Source: Candidatus Polarisedimenticolia bacterium
Lineage (GTDB): Bacteria; Acidobacteriota; Polarisedimenticolia; Gp22-AA2; AA152
Direction of reading: 5' to 3'
DNA length: 53,732 nucleotides
Assembly (NCBI GenBank): GCA_036004685.1
Contig: DASYRE010000017.1
Location: 1-53,732, forward strand
Shown here: one piece after another, positions 10,277 to 19,488 of the stretch
How positions within the stretch are numbered: position 1 is the first letter of the stretch
Layout of the letters: each line of letters opens with the position of its first letter
The notes under the pieces: model-generated
Databases searched by the model: none
The model's input: the letters and a program-made list of their open reading frames with translations, nothing else
Told to the model about the DNA's origin: nothing
Position numbers and translations under genes: made by a program

Positions 10277-11206
10277 ATGACCAAGAGCGTCTTTCTCTAC
10301 CTTTCCAGGAGCCCGGCGGCGCGCCGTTTCACGATGGGCCTGCCCCTGGCAAAGCGGGCGGCGCGCCGCTTCGTCGTGGGCGAGACCCTCCAGGAGGCTT
10401 TAAATGCTGTGAGGGTACTGAACCGCGAGGGCTTGATCGCCACGCTGGATCAGCTGGGTGAGGACGTGATGAACGCCGAGGAGGCGAAGACTTCCACCCG
10501 CGGAGTGGTCAGTATCCTCGAAGGGATCCAAAGGATGGAAGTCGATTCCAACCTGTCGCTGAAGTTGACACAGCTGGGGCTGCGCGTCGACCCGGATCTC
10601 TGCCTGGAGAACCTCGATGCGGTCGTCGAGCGTGCCAAGACGCTCGGGAATTTCGTGCGGATCGACATGGAAGGATCCGACGTCACCGACGTCACCTTTC
10701 GGCTCTACGAGAAGGTGAAGGAGCGGCACGGGAACGTCGGGATCGTCGTGCAAGCCTACCTGCGCCGGACGGAGGACGACCTCCGCCGGCGGCTGATTCC
10801 GGCCGGTGCGTCGGTGCGCCTTTGCAAGGGAGCCTACAAGGAGCCCCCGGACCGGGCGTTTCCGGCGAAGCGCGATGTCGACGCGAATTACATCCGGCTC
10901 GCCGATCTGCTCCTGGCTCCGGAGTCTCGTGCCCGGGGAGCGAGGGCCGCCATCGCGACCCACGACGAGGCGATGATCCGCCACGTCCAGACGAAAGTCG
11001 CCCGGGGGGAAATCGGCAAAAGGGATTTCGAGTTCCAGATGCTGTACGGAATCCGCCGCGACCTACAGAATGCGCTCGCGAAGGAGGGGTACATCGTGAG
11101 GATCTACGTCTCCTTCGGAACCCAATGGTATCCCTACTTCATGCGGCGCCTGGCGGAGCGCCCGGCGAACCTGTTTTTCCTTGTCCGGAACATCCTGCGA
11201 GGGTAG
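10277..11206 (+). CDS. Monofunctional proline dehydrogenase
   Basis: 309 residues, the usual size of single-domain (PutB/FadM-type) enzymes. It oxidises L-proline to pyrroline-5-carboxylate with FAD and passes electrons to the quinone pool. Barrel motifs include GVVSILEG, SLKLTQLGL, VRIDMEGS, VVQAYLRRTEDD, VRLCKGAYKEP, ATHDEAMI, FEFQMLYGIRRDLQ and a C-terminal YVSFGTQWYPYFMRRLAERP that closes the active site. No P5C dehydrogenase is fused or adjacent, so that step must be encoded elsewhere. The gene is followed after 16 bases by the deiodinase-like redoxin and probably shares its transcript. Confidence 0.95.
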   Translation: MTKSVFLYLSRSPAARRFTMGLPLAKRAARRFVVGETLQEALNAVRVLNREGLIATLDQLGEDVMNAEEAKTSTRGVVSILEGIQRMEVDSNLSLKLTQLGLRVDPDLCLENLDAVVERAKTLGNFVRIDMEGSDVTDVTFRLYEKVKERHGNVGIVVQAYLRRTEDDLRRRLIPAGASVRLCKGAYKEPPDRAFPAKRDVDANYIRLADLLLAPESRARGARAAIATHDEAMIRHVQTKVARGEIGKRDFEFQMLYGIRRDLQNALAKEGYIVRIYVSFGTQWYPYFMRRLAERPANLFFLVRNILRG

Positions 11207-11222
11207 TACCCGGAGAAGGACG

Positions 11223-11846
11223 ATGGATCTCCGGAAAACGGCGGCGGCCTTCCTGGCATCCATGACCCTGACGGCGAGTTTCGACCGAACGGGCTTGGCC
11301 GACGCGCCGGTTCCGCACTCCCACCAACACGAAGGGGTCGCCGAAAAATTCCCGGAGCATCCCGCCGCCGGAGAGGACGCTCCCGATTTCAGGCTTCGGG
11401 ATCTGAGCGGGCGGTGGATCGGCCTGGGGGAATACCTGGGCCGCGGTTATCTGGTCCTGCTCTTCTGCTCCGTCTCCTCCCCCAGCTTCCGCAAGACCGC
11501 CCTCCAGATGGATCGCCTGGCGAAGAACTGGGAGAGGCTGGAAGTGAAGGTGGTCGCAGTCTACACGCGCGAAGCGCACCCCGCGGCGCTGCGGAAGAGG
11601 GCGCCCCGGAGCTATCGCGAGCGCGCCGCCCTGGCGCGACAAGCCTGGGCCGATCTGAAGCTGAAGATCCCAGTCTTGATCGACGAATGGGAAGATCCCG
11701 TTCACCGGACCTACGGCGCCATGCCGGGATCCGCTTTTCTCCTCGATGCCCACGGAAAGATCGTCGCCCGCCACATCCAGGCCAGCGCCGATTCCATGGA
11801 AAAGGAGCTCCAGCGGGAGCTGCGTGTCACCGTCCCTCCGGAGTGA
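11223..11846 (+). CDS. Deiodinase-like thioredoxin-fold protein, serine at the Sec position
   Basis: 207 residues from ATG 11223. A probable signal peptide (residues 1-27) suggests export. The domain opens with EDAPDFRLRDLSG. It then shows FCSVSSPSF, which aligns with the deiodinase active-site box F-G-S-C-T-U-P-S-F, followed by VVAVYTREAHP, matching the deiodinase YIEEAH block. At the Sec/Cys position there is a TCC serine codon, not UGA; a Cys lies four residues earlier. The second part keeps a thioredoxin-like core (PVLIDEWEDPVHRTYGAMPGSAFLLDAHGKI). A peroxidatic or deiodinating activity is therefore doubtful; it may be a binding or divergent redox protein. Cotranscribed with proline dehydrogenase. 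Confidence 0.75.
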   Translation: MDLRKTAAAFLASMTLTASFDRTGLADAPVPHSHQHEGVAEKFPEHPAAGEDAPDFRLRDLSGRWIGLGEYLGRGYLVLLFCSVSSPSFRKTALQMDRLAKNWERLEVKVVAVYTREAHPAALRKRAPRSYRERAALARQAWADLKLKIPVLIDEWEDPVHRTYGAMPGSAFLLDAHGKIVARHIQASADSMEKELQRELRVTVPPE

Positions 11847-11852
11847 GACGGC

Positions 11853-12350
11853 TCAAGCGCCCGCGGGCCGGCCGGCTTCGCGCTTGAGGCGCTCCATCAG
11901 CTCGTGCAGGGCGTGCTTGAAGCGGCTCCGGAAGTCCGATCCGAAGGGTTGCGGCCCGCCGCTCGTCTCGCCGATCTCCCTGAGGAACTTGCCGATCTCG
12001 CGGCGCGCCAGGAGCGCTCCGATGCTGTCGGGCGTGAAGATCACGCCCCGCGAGGAGAGCGCCGCGGCGCCGGCTTTCAGACTTCGATCGGCGAGGAGGA
12101 GGTCGTCGGTGAGGACGATCTCGCCGGGAGCGGCGCGGGCGGCGATGTAGTCGTCGGCGGCCTCGGAGGCGGTGCCCACTACGACCACCTCATAGCCTTC
12201 GGAAGACTCCTGCCCGTGGCGGGCCGAGGGGCCTCCGACGACGGTGACCGGCGCGCCGTGCCGGGCGGCGATTCGCCGGGCCTCCGGCAGGACGGGGCAG
12301 CCGTCGGCGTCGATCCACAGGCGGAGGCTCGAGCGCGGCCCGGAAGTCAT
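11853..12350 (-). CDS. yaiI: YaiI/YqxD family protein (DUF188, UPF0178)
   Basis: 165 residues, a normal family length. The conserved N-terminus LRLWIDADGCPVLPEARRIA and the block GEIVLTDDLLLADRSLKAGAAALSSRG identify a PIN-like/NYN-related fold with acidic residues that may bind metal; a nuclease role has been proposed for the family but is not settled. Its ATG overlaps the stop of the upstream CMD gene in an ATGA, so efficient translation should depend on ribosomes arriving from that gene, which requires read-through of its internal UGA. Confidence 0.9.
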   Translation of the reverse strand: MTSGPRSSLRLWIDADGCPVLPEARRIAARHGAPVTVVGGPSARHGQESSEGYEVVVVGTASEAADDYIAARAAPGEIVLTDDLLLADRSLKAGAAALSSRGVIFTPDSIGALLARREIGKFLREIGETSGGPQPFGSDFRSRFKHALHELMERLKREAGRPAGA

Positions 12351-12907
12351 CGCGAGGCGGGGGGATCGTAGGGCTCGTCGGTGCCGGAAAGGTCGATGCG
12401 CAGCGCCGTCGTGAAGCGGTTCCAGTAATTCGTCAGCCCGACCACGCAGCTGATCTCCAGAATCTCCGAATCGTCATAATGCCTGCGCATCTCGGCGAAG
12501 ACCTCCTCCGTGACCCGATGGGCGTCCTTCGTCATCAGCTCGGCGAAGCGCAGCGCCGCCTTCAGCGCCGGATCGTAGGCTGCCGATTGCGCGTGCCGCT
12601 CCAAATCGGCCAGCTCCAGCTCGGTATATCCCAGCTGCCTTGCCAAGGCAGTGTGCCCGGCCACTCAATAGCGGCAGGCGTTGAGCGTCGAGACGTAAAG
12701 GAAGAGCAGCTCCTTGCGCTTGAAGGGGACCCCCCCGGTGAACATGACGGCCCGGTAGTGGGCGATCATGGTCGTCAGGTAGGACGGGAGGTGGGCGAAC
12801 GTCTTGAACGCGTTCGGAACGTTGCCGCGCTCCTTGATGTAGGTGTCGTAGATTGCCTGAATCTCAGGACCGACCTGATCTCTCTCCAGCTTCGGGAGCC
12901 GTCCCAT
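12347..12907 (-). CDS. AhpD-like / carboxymuconolactone decarboxylase-family protein, candidate selenoprotein (in-frame UGA at codon 81)
   Basis: One frame of 186 codons interrupted by a single TGA at 12665-12667. Up to the TGA it reads a normal CMD start (MGRLPKLERDQVGPEIQAI) ending STLNACRY; after it the frame continues VAGHTALARQLGY and a normal C-terminal half. In this family the site reads N-x-C-x-Y-C-x-x-x-H, so the TGA sits exactly where the second redox cysteine belongs, giving N-A-C78-R-Y-U81-V-A-G-H85. A perfect 7-bp hairpin starts 13 bases after the TGA. Sec-containing AhpD-like proteins are known. ATG 12907 has a GGAGGG ribosome site. Expected role: thiol/selenol peroxidase or disulfide reductase. 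Alternatives: nonsense mutation or sequencing error. selA/B/C/D are not in the window. Confidence 0.8.
12635..12667 (-). promoter_or_regulatory. Candidate bacterial SECIS element with its UGA
   Basis: Reading the minus strand: UGA (12667-12665), 13 bases, then CUGCCUU-GGC-AAGGCAG (12651-12635), a perfect 7-bp stem with a GGC loop. The first loop G lies about 20 bases after the UGA, within the usual range for bacterial SECIS hairpins, which need a G in the apical loop. A lower stem CCGG/CUGG can form around a 5-base bulge. The hairpin is inside the coding region, as in fdhF. Confidence 0.65.
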
Positions 12908-12970
12908 CGCTTTCCCTCCTCCGCAACCGTGCCTTCAAATCCTCGCCCTGAACCGACGTCGAACCTCCCC

Positions 12971-13150
12971 TCATTGCCCTTTCAAGCTGCGGAAATAGAT
13001 CCCCAGCCCCGCCGCCCCCAGGCCCGAGACGATCGCCCGGCCCCGGCTTCCCCGTCCCTGGGAGATGCCCGCGGCTTCCCAGCCGGCGTAGGCGAGGAAG
13101 AAGACGACCGCGGTGGCGATCAGGATTCGGTGGGCGGTCATCAGTCGCAT
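12971..13150 (-). CDS. Small two-helix membrane protein
   Basis: 59 residues from ATG 13150, with GTGAGG as ribosome site; ATG 13141 is a possible alternative. A strong hydrophobic helix (ILIATAVVFFLAYAGW) is followed by a basic loop (RGRGSRGRA order approximate) and a weaker hydrophobic stretch (IVSGLGAAGLGIYF). No family recognised. It lies between the cupredoxin and CMD genes in the same direction and may belong to the respiratory operon as a small accessory subunit, which is inference. Confidence 0.55.
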   Translation of the reverse strand: MRLMTAHRILIATAVVFFLAYAGWEAAGISQGRGSRGRAIVSGLGAAGLGIYFRSLKGQ

Positions 13151-13256
13151 CGACACCTCACCGGCGCATCGAAAGAGGAATCAATATAACCCGAAAGGGG
13201 GGAAAGGCGGCGGACAGCGGGCGGGGGCCGGTCGGCCGGCCCCCGCGGCGGCAGGG

Positions 13257-13958
13257 TTATTTCTTGGCGGGAAACGTGATGTCGGCCTTGACGTCGCCGG
13301 TCGCCGGCACGGTGACCTGGGCTGTCTGGACTCCGAGCGTCTCCTGCCAGTAGCTCAGGGTGTAGGTCCCCGGAGCGACGTTCGGCATCTTGAAGGTGCC
13401 GTCGGGGCCGGACAGCGTGTACCAGGCGTGCGGCGCCACAACCAGCCAGCCGTTCATCCAGGTGTGGACGTCGCACGACAGCCGCACCGTGTCGGGCTTC
13501 TCGAACTTGATCGGCATGACCTTCTTGAACTTGGGCTGAGCCTGGTTCACGGGCGGATTGTTCTTCGGATAGGTGTGGATGTTGTGGAGGATCCCGTCGT
13601 TGTTGAGGACCTCCAGCGTCCCGCCGGCCGGGATGATCTGCACGTGCGGATGGAACTTGCAGGATCGCTGATCCAGCTGGGGGTTGGGGGTCGGGGCGGC
13701 CATCTTGGGGGCGCCGGGGGCGTCTTTGATGTAGACGACGACATTGGCGATGGCCTTGTCGGGCGCCACCACGAGCGCTTCCTCCATGTGGGATTCCTTG
13801 GAGCAGACTTCCTTGTCCTTCGTGACCGTGATCGCTTTCTGGGGAGGAGGCGCTCCTCCGTAGGTCACCTTGCCGACGATGTTGCCCGCGAGGCCGGGAA
13901 AGGTGGCTAAGGCGAGGCAGGCGACACCGACAGCGACGGTGTTGCGGATGCGCTTCAT
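13257..13958 (-). CDS. Exported cupredoxin-like copper protein
   Basis: 233 residues from ATG 13958, giving a clean signal peptide (KRIRNTVAVGVACLALATFPGLAG). The middle part is cupredoxin-like: IIPAGGTLEVLNNDGILHNIHTY carries the first His ligand and VRLSCDVHTWMNGWLVV holds Cys, His and Met of a type 1-like site. The C-terminus (DGTFKMPNVAPGTYTLSYWQE) looks like a carboxypeptidase-regulatory/SpaA-type beta domain. The protein should be periplasmic. Placed directly after the cytochrome b/c operon, it is a plausible soluble electron carrier for that complex (inference). Similar proteins are annotated methylamine-utilisation-like. Confidence 0.8.
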   Translation of the reverse strand: MKRIRNTVAVGVACLALATFPGLAGNIVGKVTYGGAPPPQKAITVTKDKEVCSKESHMEEALVVAPDKAIANVVVYIKDAPGAPKMAAPTPNPQLDQRSCKFHPHVQIIPAGGTLEVLNNDGILHNIHTYPKNNPPVNQAQPKFKKVMPIKFEKPDTVRLSCDVHTWMNGWLVVAPHAWYTLSGPDGTFKMPNVAPGTYTLSYWQETLGVQTAQVTVPATGDVKADITFPAKK

Positions 13959-14038
13959 CGTGCTCTTGCTCCTTTTGTCATAGGAAGGATCCTGGCCGGC
14001 TCCGCATCGGCTCCGGCCCCCCTCCAAAATGTGGGGAC

Positions 14039-14066: not shown

Positions 14067-14085
14067 ACCGGCCGGAAGGGCCGGT
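14067..14085 (-). terminator. GC-rich hairpin at the end of the octahaem cytochrome gene
   Basis: ACCGGCC-GGAAG-GGCCGGT is a perfect 7-bp stem abutting the stop codon. No U-run follows, so it may be a weak attenuator or mRNA-stabilising hairpin rather than an intrinsic terminator. Confidence 0.3.
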
Positions 14086-16973
14086 CAGGAGCCGCTCCGG
14101 GAGGGACCGCCCAGGGTCAGGAGATAGTCGCGCAGGGCGCGAATCTGCCGTTCCTCGTCGCCGCCGAGGACGTCGTCGGGACCGGCCGTCGCGAAGTTGT
14201 CGGGATCGTAGAAGTTGGGCATCTTCGTCCCCGGATAGAGCTTCTGGGGGTTCTTGATCCAGTCGACGATCCACTCGGGGCGCAGGCGCTGGTGGGCGAG
14301 CGCGAAGTCGGGCGCCCAGCCGGACGGGTCTCCCTCCGGCTTCTTCGCCCCCTGCTGGTGGCAGCTGGTGCAATTGAAATAATCGGGGGAGGCGAGGGTG
14401 CGGGCGGCCGCCAGGTCCTGCGGCGTCGGCGGCGGGCCGTGGGGCGTCTCGAACGGAAAAGGGGACTCCGAGAGGGTGGAGAAATACTGGAGCAGGGCGT
14501 TGGTCTCGGCGTCGTTGAAGCCGAAGGTGGGCATGCGCACCTGGAGCCAGGGCCGGATCGGAGTCGGGCCCTGCAGGAAGCGGAACAGCCAGTCGGGCCG
14601 GACGCGCGCCCCCTCGCCGCTGATGAGCGGAGGGGAGAAGGCGACGGCCTGGCTGTCGGCCTCGTCGGCGCCCATCCCCTGCGCCACGAGCCTGGCCGCG
14701 ATCGTCGCGCGGATTTCCTGACCCTCCCCCTCGAGGAGGTGGCAGCCCTGGCAGTTGTGCTCCAGGACCAGCCGCCGTCCCGCCTCGAGAGTCCGCTGCC
14801 GGGCGTCGAGGATCCGGGTGCTCGCCAGGGGCGGCTTGTCCTTCACCATCGACAGGACGAGGGTGACGACCGCGCGCCGCTCGTCGGGAGTGAAGTTGAA
14901 CAGCGGCATCTTGAGCTTCTCCTCGGCCGTCTTCACCTTCCCCTGGTCGAAGATGCGCGGGTTTTCGAGCTTCTGATGGATCCAGTCGTGGCGGGTCTCG
15001 GGGATCTCGCTGAAGCCGAAATCGAACCGATCGACCTCCTTGCTCCCTTCTTCGCTGAGCTCCGTCCCGATCGGGGGCGTGGTCTCGAACCCCTGGATCA
15101 GGTGGCATCCGAAGCAGCCGTACCGCGTGATCATCCGCTGGCCCAGGTAGGCTTCCTTTTCGTGCGGCGACATCGAGGCGATCTTGGTCTTCACCTCAGC
15201 GGCCGTCATGCGGGCCCGGAGCTGGTCGGTGACGAGATCGTCGAGGAGCTTGGGGTCGCCCGGAGTGAGCTCCGCCTTCCACTCCTCCGCCGTCAGGGTC
15301 GTCAGATAGGCGGTGATGTCGAGCGCCTCGCGATCGGTCAGGCGCAGGTTGGGCATCCGGGTCTCGGGGAAATACTTTTTCGGGTCCTTCACCCAGGCGT
15401 AGATCCATTCCGGACGCGCCTTCGTGCCGATCCCGTCGAGATTCGGGCCGAAACGCCGCCGGAAGGTGGGCGGCGCCTTTTCGAGGCGGGCGATGGAGTG
15501 ACAGCCGGTGCAGCCGATCGTGGTGACGAGCTGCTCCCCGCGGGCGGGGTCGCCGCTTCCGGGAAGCCTGGGGAAACCGCCCGGCTCGGTCTTGTCGAAG
15601 AGATAGGCGACGATGCCGCGAATCTCCTGCCGGGTCCTGGCGAGGTCCTCCGGGGAGGAGTTGTTCGAGAGGCCGAAGAAGCGCGGCATCAGCGTGGCCG
15701 GCCTGAACGCGGCCGGATTCTCGATCCACTTGCTGACCCACTCCGGGTTGGTCTTCCAGGTCAGCCGCGTCAAGAGGGGCCCCGGCTTGCGCAGGCCCTC
15801 GAACCCCTTGATCTTGTGGCAGCCGAAGCAGCCGAACCGCTCCACCAGGTCGCGCCCCTGATTCCAGCGGGCGGCCTGCGGAATGTGCACGACGCCCTGA
15901 TGGCATGGCAGGCAGGAGGCCTCGATATATTTCGCCGGCAGCATCGGGTGCATCTCGTGCTCCTTAGGACGCCAGGAATGTTTCTTCTTCCAGGCGTCGC
16001 GCTGCGCGTCGCTGTCGGGCCAATGGGCCGCGTCCAGGAAGTCGGTGGCCCGGTCGAGTCCGCGATGGCAGACGGTGCAACCGACCTTGTCGACGGGGTG
16101 CGGGGACCTCGCGGTGAGGAAGAGCTCCGGCCGGGAGTGCGACGTGAAGGGCTGGGCGACGTCCTCGTACCCCGCCTGATCGGAACCTTGATGGCAGGTC
16201 TGGCAGCGATCGACGCGCGGGATCGAGACGAAGTTGATGTCTTTGCTCTGGGAATCGAGGACGACCTGCTGGATCTTGAGGTCCGGCGCCATGAAATCGA
16301 GCAAGGGGGCGTTGCGGAACCCCTCGAAAGCGCGCATGACCAGGCCCCGGGGCTGCACCAAGGAAAGCTTCTTCTGGAGCCGCTCCACGGCCACGAGCTT
16401 GTCGGCGCGCTCCTTCTCCAGCTCGGCCGTCCGGCCGATGAACTCGGCTTCCCGTTTCTTGAGAGCGGCGAGCGCCGCGACCGCGATTTCGTTGGCGAGC
16501 CGGGCCTTCTCCAGCTTCGCCTCCACTTCCCGCAGGCGCTGGCCAGCCCGCTCGGCGCGGCCCGATTTCTCGTGAGCTTTTTCCTCGTATTCGAAGCGCA
16601 GCGCATCGTAGATGGACTTGGTGTTCTTGGAGTCCCGGTCCTTGACGAACACTTCCTTCGAGGCGGCGGCGATCTCCCGCTGCAGCGCCTCGAGATCTTT
16701 CTGGCGCTGCTCCGTCTGGGCCTCCTGCGCGCGCAGCTCCGCCTTGATCTTCTCGAGCGCTACTTTGTCGAGGCCTTGCTCCGCCTGCTGGATCGCCTCT
16801 TCCGTCTTGCGGGCCGTGATCGAGCGGAACTCGCGCTGCAGGCGCTTCCAAGGCCGGGAGTAGTCGTCCCAGACCATCCACAGCGTCCCGAGGAGGAGCC
16901 CGAGGCTGGACAAGGCGAAGACCTTGTTCAGGAGCGGGACGCTGCGGGCGTATTCCTCGTTCTTGGCGGGCAC
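14085..16973 (-). CDS. Octahaem c-type cytochrome with N-terminal membrane anchor and coiled coil
   Basis: 962 residues from GTG 16973 (GGAG ribosome site), 18 bases after the cytochrome b C-terminal subunit. One transmembrane helix (about 13-35) is followed by a long charged coiled coil (about 45-205). Eight CXXCH haem sites follow: 257, 299, 354, 382, 488, 620, 741 and 868 (first Cys). The last five are each followed by a MP motif (LMPRF, RMPNL, KMPLF, RMPTF, KMPNF) that can supply the sixth ligand Met, as in class I cytochrome c; the first three have no such Met and may be His-ligated. Location is periplasmic, membrane-tethered. It takes the place of cytochrome c1/f in this Rieske/b complex and could wire electrons over a distance. 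Confidence 0.9.
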   Translation of the reverse strand: MPAKNEEYARSVPLLNKVFALSSLGLLLGTLWMVWDDYSRPWKRLQREFRSITARKTEEAIQQAEQGLDKVALEKIKAELRAQEAQTEQRQKDLEALQREIAAASKEVFVKDRDSKNTKSIYDALRFEYEEKAHEKSGRAERAGQRLREVEAKLEKARLANEIAVAALAALKKREAEFIGRTAELEKERADKLVAVERLQKKLSLVQPRGLVMRAFEGFRNAPLLDFMAPDLKIQQVVLDSQSKDINFVSIPRVDRCQTCHQGSDQAGYEDVAQPFTSHSRPELFLTARSPHPVDKVGCTVCHRGLDRATDFLDAAHWPDSDAQRDAWKKKHSWRPKEHEMHPMLPAKYIEASCLPCHQGVVHIPQAARWNQGRDLVERFGCFGCHKIKGFEGLRKPGPLLTRLTWKTNPEWVSKWIENPAAFRPATLMPRFFGLSNNSSPEDLARTRQEIRGIVAYLFDKTEPGGFPRLPGSGDPARGEQLVTTIGCTGCHSIARLEKAPPTFRRRFGPNLDGIGTKARPEWIYAWVKDPKKYFPETRMPNLRLTDREALDITAYLTTLTAEEWKAELTPGDPKLLDDLVTDQLRARMTAAEVKTKIASMSPHEKEAYLGQRMITRYGCFGCHLIQGFETTPPIGTELSEEGSKEVDRFDFGFSEIPETRHDWIHQKLENPRIFDQGKVKTAEEKLKMPLFNFTPDERRAVVTLVLSMVKDKPPLASTRILDARQRTLEAGRRLVLEHNCQGCHLLEGEGQEIRATIAARLVAQGMGADEADSQAVAFSPPLISGEGARVRPDWLFRFLQGPTPIRPWLQVRMPTFGFNDAETNALLQYFSTLSESPFPFETPHGPPPTPQDLAAARTLASPDYFNCTSCHQQGAKKPEGDPSGWAPDFALAHQRLRPEWIVDWIKNPQKLYPGTKMPNFYDPDNFATAGPDDVLGGDEERQIRALRDYLLTLGGPSRSGS

Positions 16974-16991
16974 CGATCGGCTCCGGCTCAG

Positions 16992-18074
16992 TCAGATGTT
17001 GAAGAAGTACTCCGGGATCGCGACGACGTAATGCATGTTGAACAGCCAGCGGAGGTACATCTTGATCGGCAGGCTGACCATGCACAGCAGCAGGAAGACG
17101 AGGATTTGATACCTCGCCATGCCCATCTTCTCGAAGAAGGGCTTGAACCAGGTCTTCGCCAGGAGCAGCGGAGTCAGGACGAAGTAGGCGAGCACGAGCA
17201 GGATGCCGAAGATCTCACGGAGGAACCAGTTCTGGGGAAGCCCCGTGTTGAAGACCTGCACCCAGATCACCTCCGAGAGGTTGATGTTGCTCAAGGGGAC
17301 GAGCTTGTGGACGTCCCATTTCTCGAACGGGCCGAAGAAGTTCTGGTTCGGGCCGCGGAAGAAGGTGCCGGTGATGATCATCATGACCCAGAGGACCAGG
17401 AAGCCGAATTGGAAGGTCAGGATCTCCCACTTCCGCTCGGCGAAGGTGTAGTAGCCGTTCCCCTTCTTGTTCGGGTCGATGTAGGGCAGCGCCATCAGGC
17501 CGATGATGATCAAGCCCGGCAGGAGCACGCCGGCAATCCAGGGGTCGTAGTAGACCAGCATCTCCTGCAGCCCGAGGAAGTACCAGGGCGCCTTGGAGGG
17601 GTTCGGGGTCTTGGCGGGGTTCGCCGGCTCCTCGATCGGCGCCTTGAGGTAGATCGACCAGACGATCAGGAGCACGCCCCAGAGGATCATGCAGAGGAAC
17701 TCGGTGTAGACCAGATCCGGCCAGACCAGGATCTTGATCTCCGACTCCAGCTTTTCCTCGGGGGGAAGGCTTTTCCCCATCCTCTCGTCGTTCTTCAGCG
17801 CCAGGTACATCGAGAGCCAGGAGAAGAAGCCCACCAGGAAGAGCATGGCGACGATCGGCACGTTGTCGGGCTTGGTGACGATCAGGCGGAAGTTGGGATC
17901 GGTCAGGCCGTAGGCCACGAACGCCGCCCCGAGCGCGAAGGCGATAAGCGCGGCGCGCGGGGACCAGAGCCATCGCAGCTTCCGGAGCAGGAAGGCGGCG
18001 AAAAACAGGATGAAGATCAGAGTGAAGAGGATGGGCGGGTTACAGAGCCAGTCCACCACCGATTTGAAGAGCAT
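16992..18074 (-). CDS. Cytochrome b C-terminal subunit (subunit IV-like, extended)
   Basis: 360 residues, polytopic, from ATG 18074 (GGGAG ribosome site). The Qo-site loop KAPWYFLGLQEML replaces the PEWY motif of classical bc1/b6f. It is the variant seen in bc complexes with split cytochrome b, including menaquinol-using ones (family knowledge, from memory). About eight to nine hydrophobic segments are visible, more than the three of subunit IV, including two extra N-terminal helices (LFTLIFILFFAAFLL; AALIAFALGAAFVAYGL) and one near PIVAMLFLVGFFSWL. It lacks haem-ligating His pairs, as expected. It forms the quinol-oxidising complex with the next two upstream genes. Confidence 0.88.
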   Translation of the reverse strand: MLFKSVVDWLCNPPILFTLIFILFFAAFLLRKLRWLWSPRAALIAFALGAAFVAYGLTDPNFRLIVTKPDNVPIVAMLFLVGFFSWLSMYLALKNDERMGKSLPPEEKLESEIKILVWPDLVYTEFLCMILWGVLLIVWSIYLKAPIEEPANPAKTPNPSKAPWYFLGLQEMLVYYDPWIAGVLLPGLIIIGLMALPYIDPNKKGNGYYTFAERKWEILTFQFGFLVLWVMMIITGTFFRGPNQNFFGPFEKWDVHKLVPLSNINLSEVIWVQVFNTGLPQNWFLREIFGILLVLAYFVLTPLLLAKTWFKPFFEKMGMARYQILVFLLLCMVSLPIKMYLRWLFNMHYVVAIPEYFFNI

Positions 18075-18104
18075 CGCCTGATCTCCCGGCCGCCCGGTTC
18101 CGCT

Positions 18105-18896
18105 TCAGAGGGGCCCTGAAATCCCGCCGTCCTTGCGGACTCTCCAGAAATGAACGGCCATCAGGACGGCCGCCACGAGGGGAATGCCCACGCAGTGGAG
18201 GACGTAGAAGCGCAACAACGCCGCGGAGCCGACGAAGCGCCCCGCGAGCAGGGCGAACCGGGCATCGTCGCCGGCGTGGACCAGCCCGATGTCCCCGACT
18301 TTGAGGAGCGCGGCCCCCGGGCCCTCGTTGCCCAGAAAGGGGGTAGCTCTCGCCATGTTCGAGCCCACCGTCACGGCCCACATCGCCAGCTGGTCCCAGG
18401 GGAGAAGGTAGCCGGTGAAGCTGAGAAGAAGCGTGAGCACGAGCAGCAGGACACCCACGTTCCAGTTGAACTCCCGTGGCGGCTTGTAGGAGCCGGTCAT
18501 GAACACCCGAAGCATGTGGAGCCAGACGGCGATGACCATGGCGTGGGCGCCCCAGCGATGGATCTCGCGCATCACGCCGAGCGGCACCTGCGACCGCAGG
18601 TCGAGGATGTCGACGAAGGCGTACTCCGCCGTCGGCCGGTAATAGAACATCAACAGGAGACCGGTGATCGTCTCGACCAGGAACAGGAAGAAGGTCGTCC
18701 CGCCGGCGCACCAGGTGTATTTCAGCCGGAGCCCCGATTTGCGGACCTTGACCGGATGGAGGTGAAGGAAGACGTTGGTGAGCACGGCCAGCGAGCGGTT
18801 TCGCGTGTTATCCGGGGGGCCGTGACGGAAAATGGAGTTCCAGACCTGCGATTCCCGTAAGTTGTCGAACCACGATTTCTTCGGCGGCGTGGCCAT
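18105..18896 (-). CDS. Cytochrome b N-terminal subunit (cytochrome b6-like)
   Basis: 263 residues from ATG 18896; a GTG two codons upstream is less likely. Four transmembrane helices with the two haem-b His pairs: [15 protein letters not shown] in helix B and the helix D pair in [18 protein letters not shown]. The Qo-loop sequence [14 protein letters not shown] is conserved. The length and the break before the PEWY-type loop make it a b6-type half, the other half being the next gene. It transfers quinol electrons across the membrane. The order Rieske, b N-half, b C-half, octahaem c is one operon with short gaps. Confidence 0.93.
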
Positions 18897-18939
18897 GGTC
18901 ACCCTCGATCCATCGCGTCAGTAGGTCCTCGAGCCGATC

Positions 18940-19488
18940 TCAGACGGGGATGAATGCCTCGGGGTCCTGCCATTGTCCCTTTTCCTGCCGGTAGACCTTG
19001 GTCTTGTCCACGAGAATCTGCCCGTCCTCCGCCAGGACGATCCGAAACCGCTCCAGCGGGCGCGGCGCCGGCCCTTCGAAGTTGATCCCGGTGATGTAGA
19101 AGCCGCTTCCGTGGCAGGGGCACTTGAACTTGCCTTCGGCGTCGAGCCAGTTCGGCGTGCACCCGAGATGCGTGCACACCGTGCTGAGCGCGTAGATTTC
19201 CTTGTCGTCCCGCACCATGAAGACTCCCCGCGATTCCTTGAAGCGGTTGTCGACGCCCGGCGCGTACTCGCTCGGGAAGCCGGCCTTGAAGGTCTGGGGA
19301 GGCTCGAAAAGGACGTTCGGGAAGAAGAAGCGCAGGGTGGAGACGGAAATCAGGGTCATCGCTCCGGTGAAGGAGACCCAGGCGATGGCGATCCAGGAGA
19401 GGAAGCCGCGGCGACTTACCTCACCGCCGGCGGCCGCGCCCGGGGAAGCCGGCAGGACAACCGGCTCCGTCTTGGGAGCATCGGGCAT
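18940..19488 (-). CDS. Rieske iron-sulfur protein of the bc-type complex
   Basis: 182 residues. After a polar N-terminus, RRGFLSWIAIAWVSFTG gives a twin-arginine-like motif running into the single membrane anchor, the standard route for Rieske proteins; tatA is encoded elsewhere in the window. The [2Fe-2S] ligands are in CTHLGCTPNW (Cys, His) and CPCHGSGFY (Cys, His), with the bridging disulfide Cys in each box present. A promoter lies about 100 bases upstream, so this is the first gene of the respiratory operon. Function: takes an electron from quinol and hands it to the c-type cytochrome. Confidence 0.95.
   Translation of the reverse strand: MPDAPKTEPVVLPASPGAAAGGEVSRRGFLSWIAIAWVSFTGAMTLISVSTLRFFFPNVLFEPPQTFKAGFPSEYAPGVDNRFKESRGVFMVRDDKEIYALSTVCTHLGCTPNWLDAEGKFKCPCHGSGFYITGINFEGPAPRPLERFRIVLAEDGQILVDKTKVYRQEKGQWQDPEAFIPV

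What the first reader, a model, noticed from the sequence alone, without database searches (positions are those of the whole stretch)
12347..12907. AhpD/CMD-family gene with in-frame UGA at the redox-cysteine position (candidate selenoprotein)
The gene is one frame of 186 codons broken only by a TGA at codon 81. The surrounding motif is N-A-C-R-Y-(TGA)-V-A-G-H, where family members have Cys at the TGA position. A random nonsense mutation would rarely fall exactly on the residue that can be replaced by selenocysteine. Sec-containing AhpD-like proteins have been described. A conventional gene caller would split this into two ORFs or call it a pseudogene.
Basis: partly seen in the sequence, partly recalled or inferred. 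Interest (0 to 1): 0.85.

Follow-up and report, generated by a model that had tools for sequence, protein, structure and literature searches.

The report
Selenium-containing AhpD-like redox protein
This acidobacterium's antioxidant-type gene carries a UGA 'stop' that is almost certainly read as the rare amino acid selenocysteine at the enzyme's active site; it is a real but fairly ordinary new member of a selenoprotein family known since 2005, which gene-finding programs would probably split in two.

Summary
One 186-residue AhpD/CMD frame (12907..12347) is broken only by UGA at codon 81 (12667-12665), the second position of the CxxC redox motif. The selenocysteine reading is very strongly supported. 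The genome has tRNA-Sec(UCA), selA, selB and a selD that itself carries a Sec codon. Twenty-four Acidobacteriota genes, three of them relatives at 78-79% identity, have UGA at this codon; nine close orthologues have Cys. A 7-bp hairpin with an invariant GGC triloop starts 13 nt after the UGA. It meets the published bacterial SECIS rules, covaries at 6 of 7 pairs, is absent from Cys orthologues, and recurs in a homologue left out of the model. All 24 Sec-type genomes have selA; 8 of 11 Cys-only genomes lack it. The predicted fold is AhpD-like, and the five proton-relay residues of P. aeruginosa PA0269 are present with Sec replacing the second Cys. AhpD-like (COG2128/TIGR01926) CxxU selenoproteins have been known since 2005, so this is a new member of a known kind, below the cut-offs of the curated selenoprotein models tested. 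Selenium incorporation and enzyme activity are inferred, not shown.

The parts
12347..12907 (-). AhpD-like selenoprotein gene, 186 residues with Sec81, ATG at 12907, terminal UGA at 12349-12347
   Evidence: Translation with TGA=U; Pfam CMD E 2e-17; orthologues in three genomes of the family at 78-79% identity with the same UGA
12665..12667 (-). In-frame UGA, codon 81, read as selenocysteine
   Evidence: UGA in 24 Acidobacteriota homologues, Cys in nine close orthologues
12635..12651 (-). SECIS hairpin CUGCCUU-GGC-AAGGCAG, 7 bp with a GGC triloop at 12644-12642, loop 20 nt after the UGA
   Evidence: Covariation at 6 of 7 pairs; absent in Cys orthologues; held-out confirmation
12915..12922 (-). 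Shine-Dalgarno-like GGAGGAGG, 7 nt before the ATG
   Evidence: Read directly from the sequence
11853..12350 (-). Downstream DUF188 (YaiI/YqxD) gene whose ATG overlaps the terminal UGA (ATGA)
   Evidence: the overlap suggests translational coupling (inference)
13257..14027 (-). Upstream gene with a regulatory-like beta domain, conserved neighbour in the same family
12971..13156 (-). 61-residue conserved small protein directly upstream
   Evidence: 62-64% identity in the three same-family relatives

Best explanation
The gene encodes a 186-residue AhpD-like (COG2128/TIGR01926-type) selenoprotein. The ribosome meets UGA at codon 81. A compact SECIS hairpin beginning 13 nt downstream recruits SelB with Sec-tRNA(UCA), selenocysteine is inserted, and translation continues to the terminal UGA. 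Sec81 replaces the second cysteine of the AhpD CxxC site and would act as the nucleophile that attacks a peroxide or an oxidised partner, activated by the Glu66/Tyr80/His85 relay and resolved by Cys78 as a selenenylsulfide. Shown here: conserved UGA, Sec/Cys exchange, covarying hairpin, complete Sec machinery, AhpD fold and relay residues. Inferred: actual Sec insertion, the catalytic cycle and the substrate (the peroxidase or disulfide-reductase part alone about 0.65).
For: tRNA-Sec with UCA anticodon, SelA, SelB, SelD with its own Sec codon in GGUAAK. UGA kept in three relatives at 78-79% identity and in 24 homologues; Cys in nine close orthologues. Hairpin: 99.4% of cells paired, 6 of 7 pairs with double changes, covariation 0.759 against 0.275 in shuffles, the same hairpin predicted by RNAalifold, only 1-4 of 7 pairs in Cys orthologues, full hairpin in a homologue not used for the model. 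Seven hairpin codons identical in four orthologues against 30 of 109 elsewhere. selA in 24 of 24 Sec genomes and 3 of 11 Cys-only genomes. dN well below dS after the UGA. AhpD-like fold and exact spacing of the PA0269 relay residues (PMC3141380).
Against: No direct proof of selenium incorporation. Folding energy of the single sequence is only weakly unusual. The bare 17-nt hairpin of some relatives is weaker than -7.5 kcal/mol. Sec genes lie on different contigs of a 62-contig assembly. The protein scores just under the TIGR01926 cut-off (78.3 against 81.8 bits). The substrate is unknown.
Confidence: 0.93

Rival explanations
1. Pseudogene: a nonsense mutation truncated a CxxC AhpD gene.
For: One stop inside an otherwise intact frame; gene callers would see two ORFs.
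Against: Same UGA in 24 homologues across the phylum, purifying selection after the UGA, covarying hairpin, complete Sec machinery.
Confidence: 0.01
2. Sequencing or assembly error: the true codon is TGC or TGT.
For: Reads were not available; the assembly is in 62 contigs.
Against: Three separately assembled relatives at 78-79% identity have the same UGA, and the hairpin found in Sec genes but not in Cys genes is intact.
Confidence: 0.005
3. UGA is read as another amino acid (for example Trp), or by unspecific near-cognate readthrough, rather than as Sec.
For: The frame is open past the UGA.
Against: Homologues have Cys, never Trp, at this column. UGA ends this same gene and other genes here. 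A SECIS hairpin and all Sec genes are present. selA is missing only from genomes whose homologue lacks UGA.
Confidence: 0.01
4. Same selenoprotein, different chemistry: Sec81 serves a dehalogenase-like or decarboxylase-like reaction (as in Bmp8) or a disulfide-relay role, not peroxide reduction.
For: Bmp8 debrominase matches the model at Z about 19 and by sequence. Eight of nine close Cys orthologues lack the first Cys (Thr instead), so a two-thiol cycle is not universal in this clade.
Against: The closest structures are peroxidase-related AhpD-like proteins, and all five proton-relay residues are kept in the window protein. A redoxin gene and a respiratory bc cluster are neighbours.
Confidence: 0.3

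Closest known systems
AhpD-like selenoprotein, COG2128/TIGR01926, CxxU ('AhpD-like 1'; PMC1088965, PMC2398784, PMC9312934, PMC13188914)
   Same: Same protein family, same CxxU motif, Sec in the same position, bacterial SECIS after the UGA
   Different: Published examples named are mainly marine or clostridial; this clade is Acidobacteriota. No published sequence could be fetched for a direct tree.
NF053654 GroundWater_YciW, YciW-related (seleno)protein
   Same: Full-length alignment, Sec-tolerant curated family
   Different: 76 bits against a cut-off of 310, so not the same equivalog
PA0269 of Pseudomonas aeruginosa (2ijc, 2o4d, 7xw1)
   Same: AhpD-like fold, relay Glu/Cys/Tyr/Cys/His with identical spacing, Z about 20
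   Different: Cys instead of Sec; about 30% identity; shorter N-terminus
Mycobacterium tuberculosis AhpD (1gu9, 1knc)
   Same: Shared helical core and CxxC/relay logic (Z 12.6)
   Different: About 9% identity, different helix order, His132 instead of Tyr, partner of AhpC
Bmp8 debrominase (6ohi, 6ohj)
   Same: Same fold, Z about 19
   Different: About 18% identity in the structural alignment; Cys enzyme acting on tetrabromopyrrole; no evidence here for that substrate

Membership tests
Bacterial selenoprotein gene | In-frame UGA at a Cys position of homologues | tested here: met
   UGA in 24 homologues, Cys in nine close orthologues
Bacterial selenoprotein gene | SECIS hairpin: 3-9 nt loop, 4-16 bp stem, G in the first two loop positions, 16-37 nt from UGA, MFE at most -7.5 (PMC13188914) | tested here: met
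   3 nt, 7 bp, GG, 20 nt, -8.0 kcal/mol; covariation
Bacterial selenoprotein gene | selA, selB, selC, selD in the genome | tested here: met
Bacterial selenoprotein gene | Selenium physically incorporated | not testable with these tools
   Needs 75Se labelling or mass spectrometry
AhpD-like selenoprotein (COG2128/TIGR01926, CxxU) | CMD/AhpD domain with CxxU-x3-H motif | tested here: met
   PF02627 and TIGR00778 above cut-off; CRYU-VAG-H
AhpD-like selenoprotein (COG2128/TIGR01926, CxxU) | TIGR01926 curated cut-off (81.8 bits) | tested here: inconclusive
   Window protein 78.3 bits, E 6e-22, just below; all 32 aligned members match the model at E up to 0.001. The C-for-U substitution does not explain it. 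The Sec paralogue L027 scores above (104.4)
NF053654 GroundWater_YciW | Curated equivalog cut-off (310 bits) | tested here: not met
   76 bits
NF041238 AhpD_rel_CFYUT | Curated equivalog cut-off (175 bits) | tested here: not met
   29.5 bits
AhpD-type peroxidase (works like) | Proton relay Glu, Cys, Tyr/His, Cys, His with PA0269 spacing | tested here: met
   E66, C78, Y80, U81, H85 against E36, C48, Y50, C51, H55
AhpD-type peroxidase (works like) | Hydroperoxide reduction | not testable with these tools
   Needs an enzyme assay

The most novel reading that the evidence does not exclude
This is a distinct Acidobacteriota subfamily of AhpD-like selenoproteins, not captured at cut-off by the curated models tested, with an unusually uniform minimal SECIS (7 bp, invariant GGC triloop, fixed spacing). 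Where selenium use is given up, CxxU turns into TxxC rather than CxxC, implying a changed catalytic cycle. In the family of this genome the protein works with an adjacent bc-type respiratory cluster.
Probability: 0.25. Interest if true: 0.5.

Novelty: new member of a known kind. Interest (0 to 1): 0.36.

Why it matters
It adds a well-supported selenoprotein in uncultured Acidobacteriota that standard gene calling would probably split at the UGA. It also offers a natural series in which Sec became Cys and selA was then lost, with the partner cysteine changing too, so it can be asked what an enzyme gives up when it gives up selenium. The minimal covarying hairpin is a convenient substrate for studying SelB recognition.

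Tried and rejected
An Rfam scan of the window found nothing, which says little about this hairpin. Single-sequence folding gave only weak z-scores; comparative covariation was used instead. Searching the own genome with the SECIS model returned only this gene strongly, so the model is family-specific and gave no wider selenoproteome. The named-genome scan returned only two loci, both relatives already seen. Openness of the frame alone was not counted as evidence, since 82 similar TGA-split frames exist in the window. Pseudogene, sequencing error and Trp recoding were rejected as described under rivals. More distant Cys paralogues keep CxxC (L071, L072, L074) or have Ser at the position (L073), so the TxxC pattern holds only for close orthologues. 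A literature search for Bmp8 in the held library found nothing.

Full report
OBSERVATION. The finding is accurate in coordinates, codon number and motif, but the gene is on the minus strand. Read from 12907 to 12347 with UGA=U it gives a single 186-residue protein...KELLFLYVSTLNACRY-U-VAGHTALARQLGY..., ended by a second UGA. A GGAGGAGG ribosome-binding site lies 7 nt before the ATG. The terminal UGA overlaps the ATG of a downstream DUF188 gene (ATGA, 12350-12347). In this GC-rich window 82 TGA codons have at least 70 open codons on both sides, so the bare open frame is not evidence. Homology is: both halves align with one CMD domain and with solved AhpD-like proteins, and GC3 is 0.84 on either side of the UGA.

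MACHINERY. The assembly that holds the window (3.84 Mb, 62 contigs, listed as 100% complete and 1.5% contaminated) encodes tRNA-Sec with a UCA anticodon, SelA, SelB and SelD. SelD itself has an in-frame UGA at its usual Sec position, GGUAAK.

CONSERVATION OF THE UGA. Three genomes of the same family carry the gene at 78-79% identity with the same UGA; two of them are named Acidobacteria MAGs. Across the phylum, 24 genes read here (the window's included) carry UGA at this codon, down to 31-33% identity. Nine close orthologues carry Cys there, and the column is U or C in all 32 aligned proteins. Nonsynonymous divergence stays well below synonymous divergence after the UGA as well as before it (synonymous sites are near saturation, so only the direction is meaningful).

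SECIS. Starting 13 nt after the UGA, the UGA-type genes have a 7-bp stem (6 pairs in one of them) closed by an invariant GGC triloop (12651-12635 in the window, loop at 12644-12642). In the four family orthologues the region is the longest identical DNA stretch (21 nt; the next is 11), and all seven codons are identical, against 30 of 109 comparable codons elsewhere (the stretch was picked after seeing it). On 23 sequences, 99.4% of cells pair, six of seven pairs show double changes, and the covariation score is 0.759 against 0.275 for shuffles (0 of 500) and at most 0.187 for slid versions. RNAalifold predicts exactly this hairpin. The nine Cys orthologues keep only 1-4 of the seven pairs. 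A further UGA homologue fetched later and not used in the model has all seven pairs and the GGC loop. The hairpin meets the published bacterial SECIS rules (PMC13188914): loop 3 nt, stem 7 bp, G at the first loop positions, spacing 20 nt, -8.0 kcal/mol.

SEC-TO-CYS HISTORY. All 24 Sec-type genomes have selA; of 11 Cys-only genomes 8 lack it (Fisher 7e-6, not corrected for relatedness, and one of the 11, G159, carries a divergent paralogue with Ser at the site). On the protein tree the label needs two changes (0 of 500 shuffles as low), and eight Cys orthologues form one group within a family that also has Sec forms. One of these eight, L048, still has selA and the CxxC motif; the genomes of the other seven lack selA and their proteins have TxxC. 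Overall, 8 of 9 close Cys orthologues have Thr where Sec forms have Cys78, while all Sec forms keep Cys78. This suggests that losing Sec goes with losing its resolving cysteine; it is unexplained.

STRUCTURE AND MECHANISM. The model (pLDDT 91.5) is AhpD-like, closest to 6k40, 2prr, 2oyo and 3c1l (Z about 22), with Bmp8 debrominase at 19 and M. tuberculosis AhpD at 12.6. PA0269 is described as using Glu36, Cys48, Tyr50, Cys51 and His55 as a proton relay (PMC3141380). The window protein has Glu66, Cys78, Tyr80, Sec81 and His85 at exactly the same spacing. The most likely function is selenol-based peroxide or disulfide reduction with a Cys78-Sec81 selenenylsulfide intermediate. The chemistry and substrate are inferred (about 0.65), whereas selenocysteine encoding is close to certain on sequence evidence.

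CONTEXT. In the genome's family the gene follows a conserved order: multihaem cytochrome c, a regulatory-domain-like protein, a 61-residue protein, then this gene, with a redoxin gene and proline dehydrogenase beyond it. In the window, cytochrome b and Rieske-type genes precede the cytochrome c gene. Homologues in other families showed none of these neighbours within about 1.5 kb, so the link is family-specific.

NOVELTY. AhpD-like (COG2128) CxxU selenoproteins were reported from the Sargasso Sea in 2005 (PMC1088965) and counted in GOS (PMC2398784), and TIGR01926 is listed as a CxxU family in a 2026 review (PMC13188914). This is a new member of that kind. It lies below the cut-offs of the curated (seleno)protein models NF053654 and NF041238. 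The papers found do not name an AhpD-like selenoprotein in Acidobacteriota, though absence from the held library proves little.

Noticed in passing
L027 1501-1902 (G000:C36:28700-29101); also L026, L028, L029: A second, distinct CMD selenoprotein candidate (motif NRCHY-U-ITSH) in the same genome and its three relatives, above the TIGR01926 cut-off, with its own small GUU-loop hairpin about 17 nt after the UGA.
   Followed up: partly
L018 1501-2427 (G000:C8:40973-41899): SelD of this genome is itself a selenoprotein (SSGGUAAKL), with a possible GGA-loop hairpin after its UGA.
   Followed up: partly
L045, L047, L050-L054, L057 (column 78 of the alignment): When Sec is replaced by Cys in close orthologues, the first Cys of CxxU is usually Thr (TxxC in 8 of 9), in two separate lineages on the tree.
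   Followed up: partly
window 11181-11846, plus strand: AhpC-TSA/redoxin-like protein with an atypical LLFCSVSSPSF site (single Cys, no CxxC), a neighbour conserved in all same-family relatives.
   Followed up: no
window 14085-19488, minus strand: Cluster of Rieske-type, cytochrome b and a 962-residue multihaem cytochrome c gene, a bc-type respiratory complex, directly upstream.
   Followed up: no
window 12971-13156, minus strand: 61-residue protein without a Pfam match, conserved at 62-64% identity in the three relatives.
   Followed up: no
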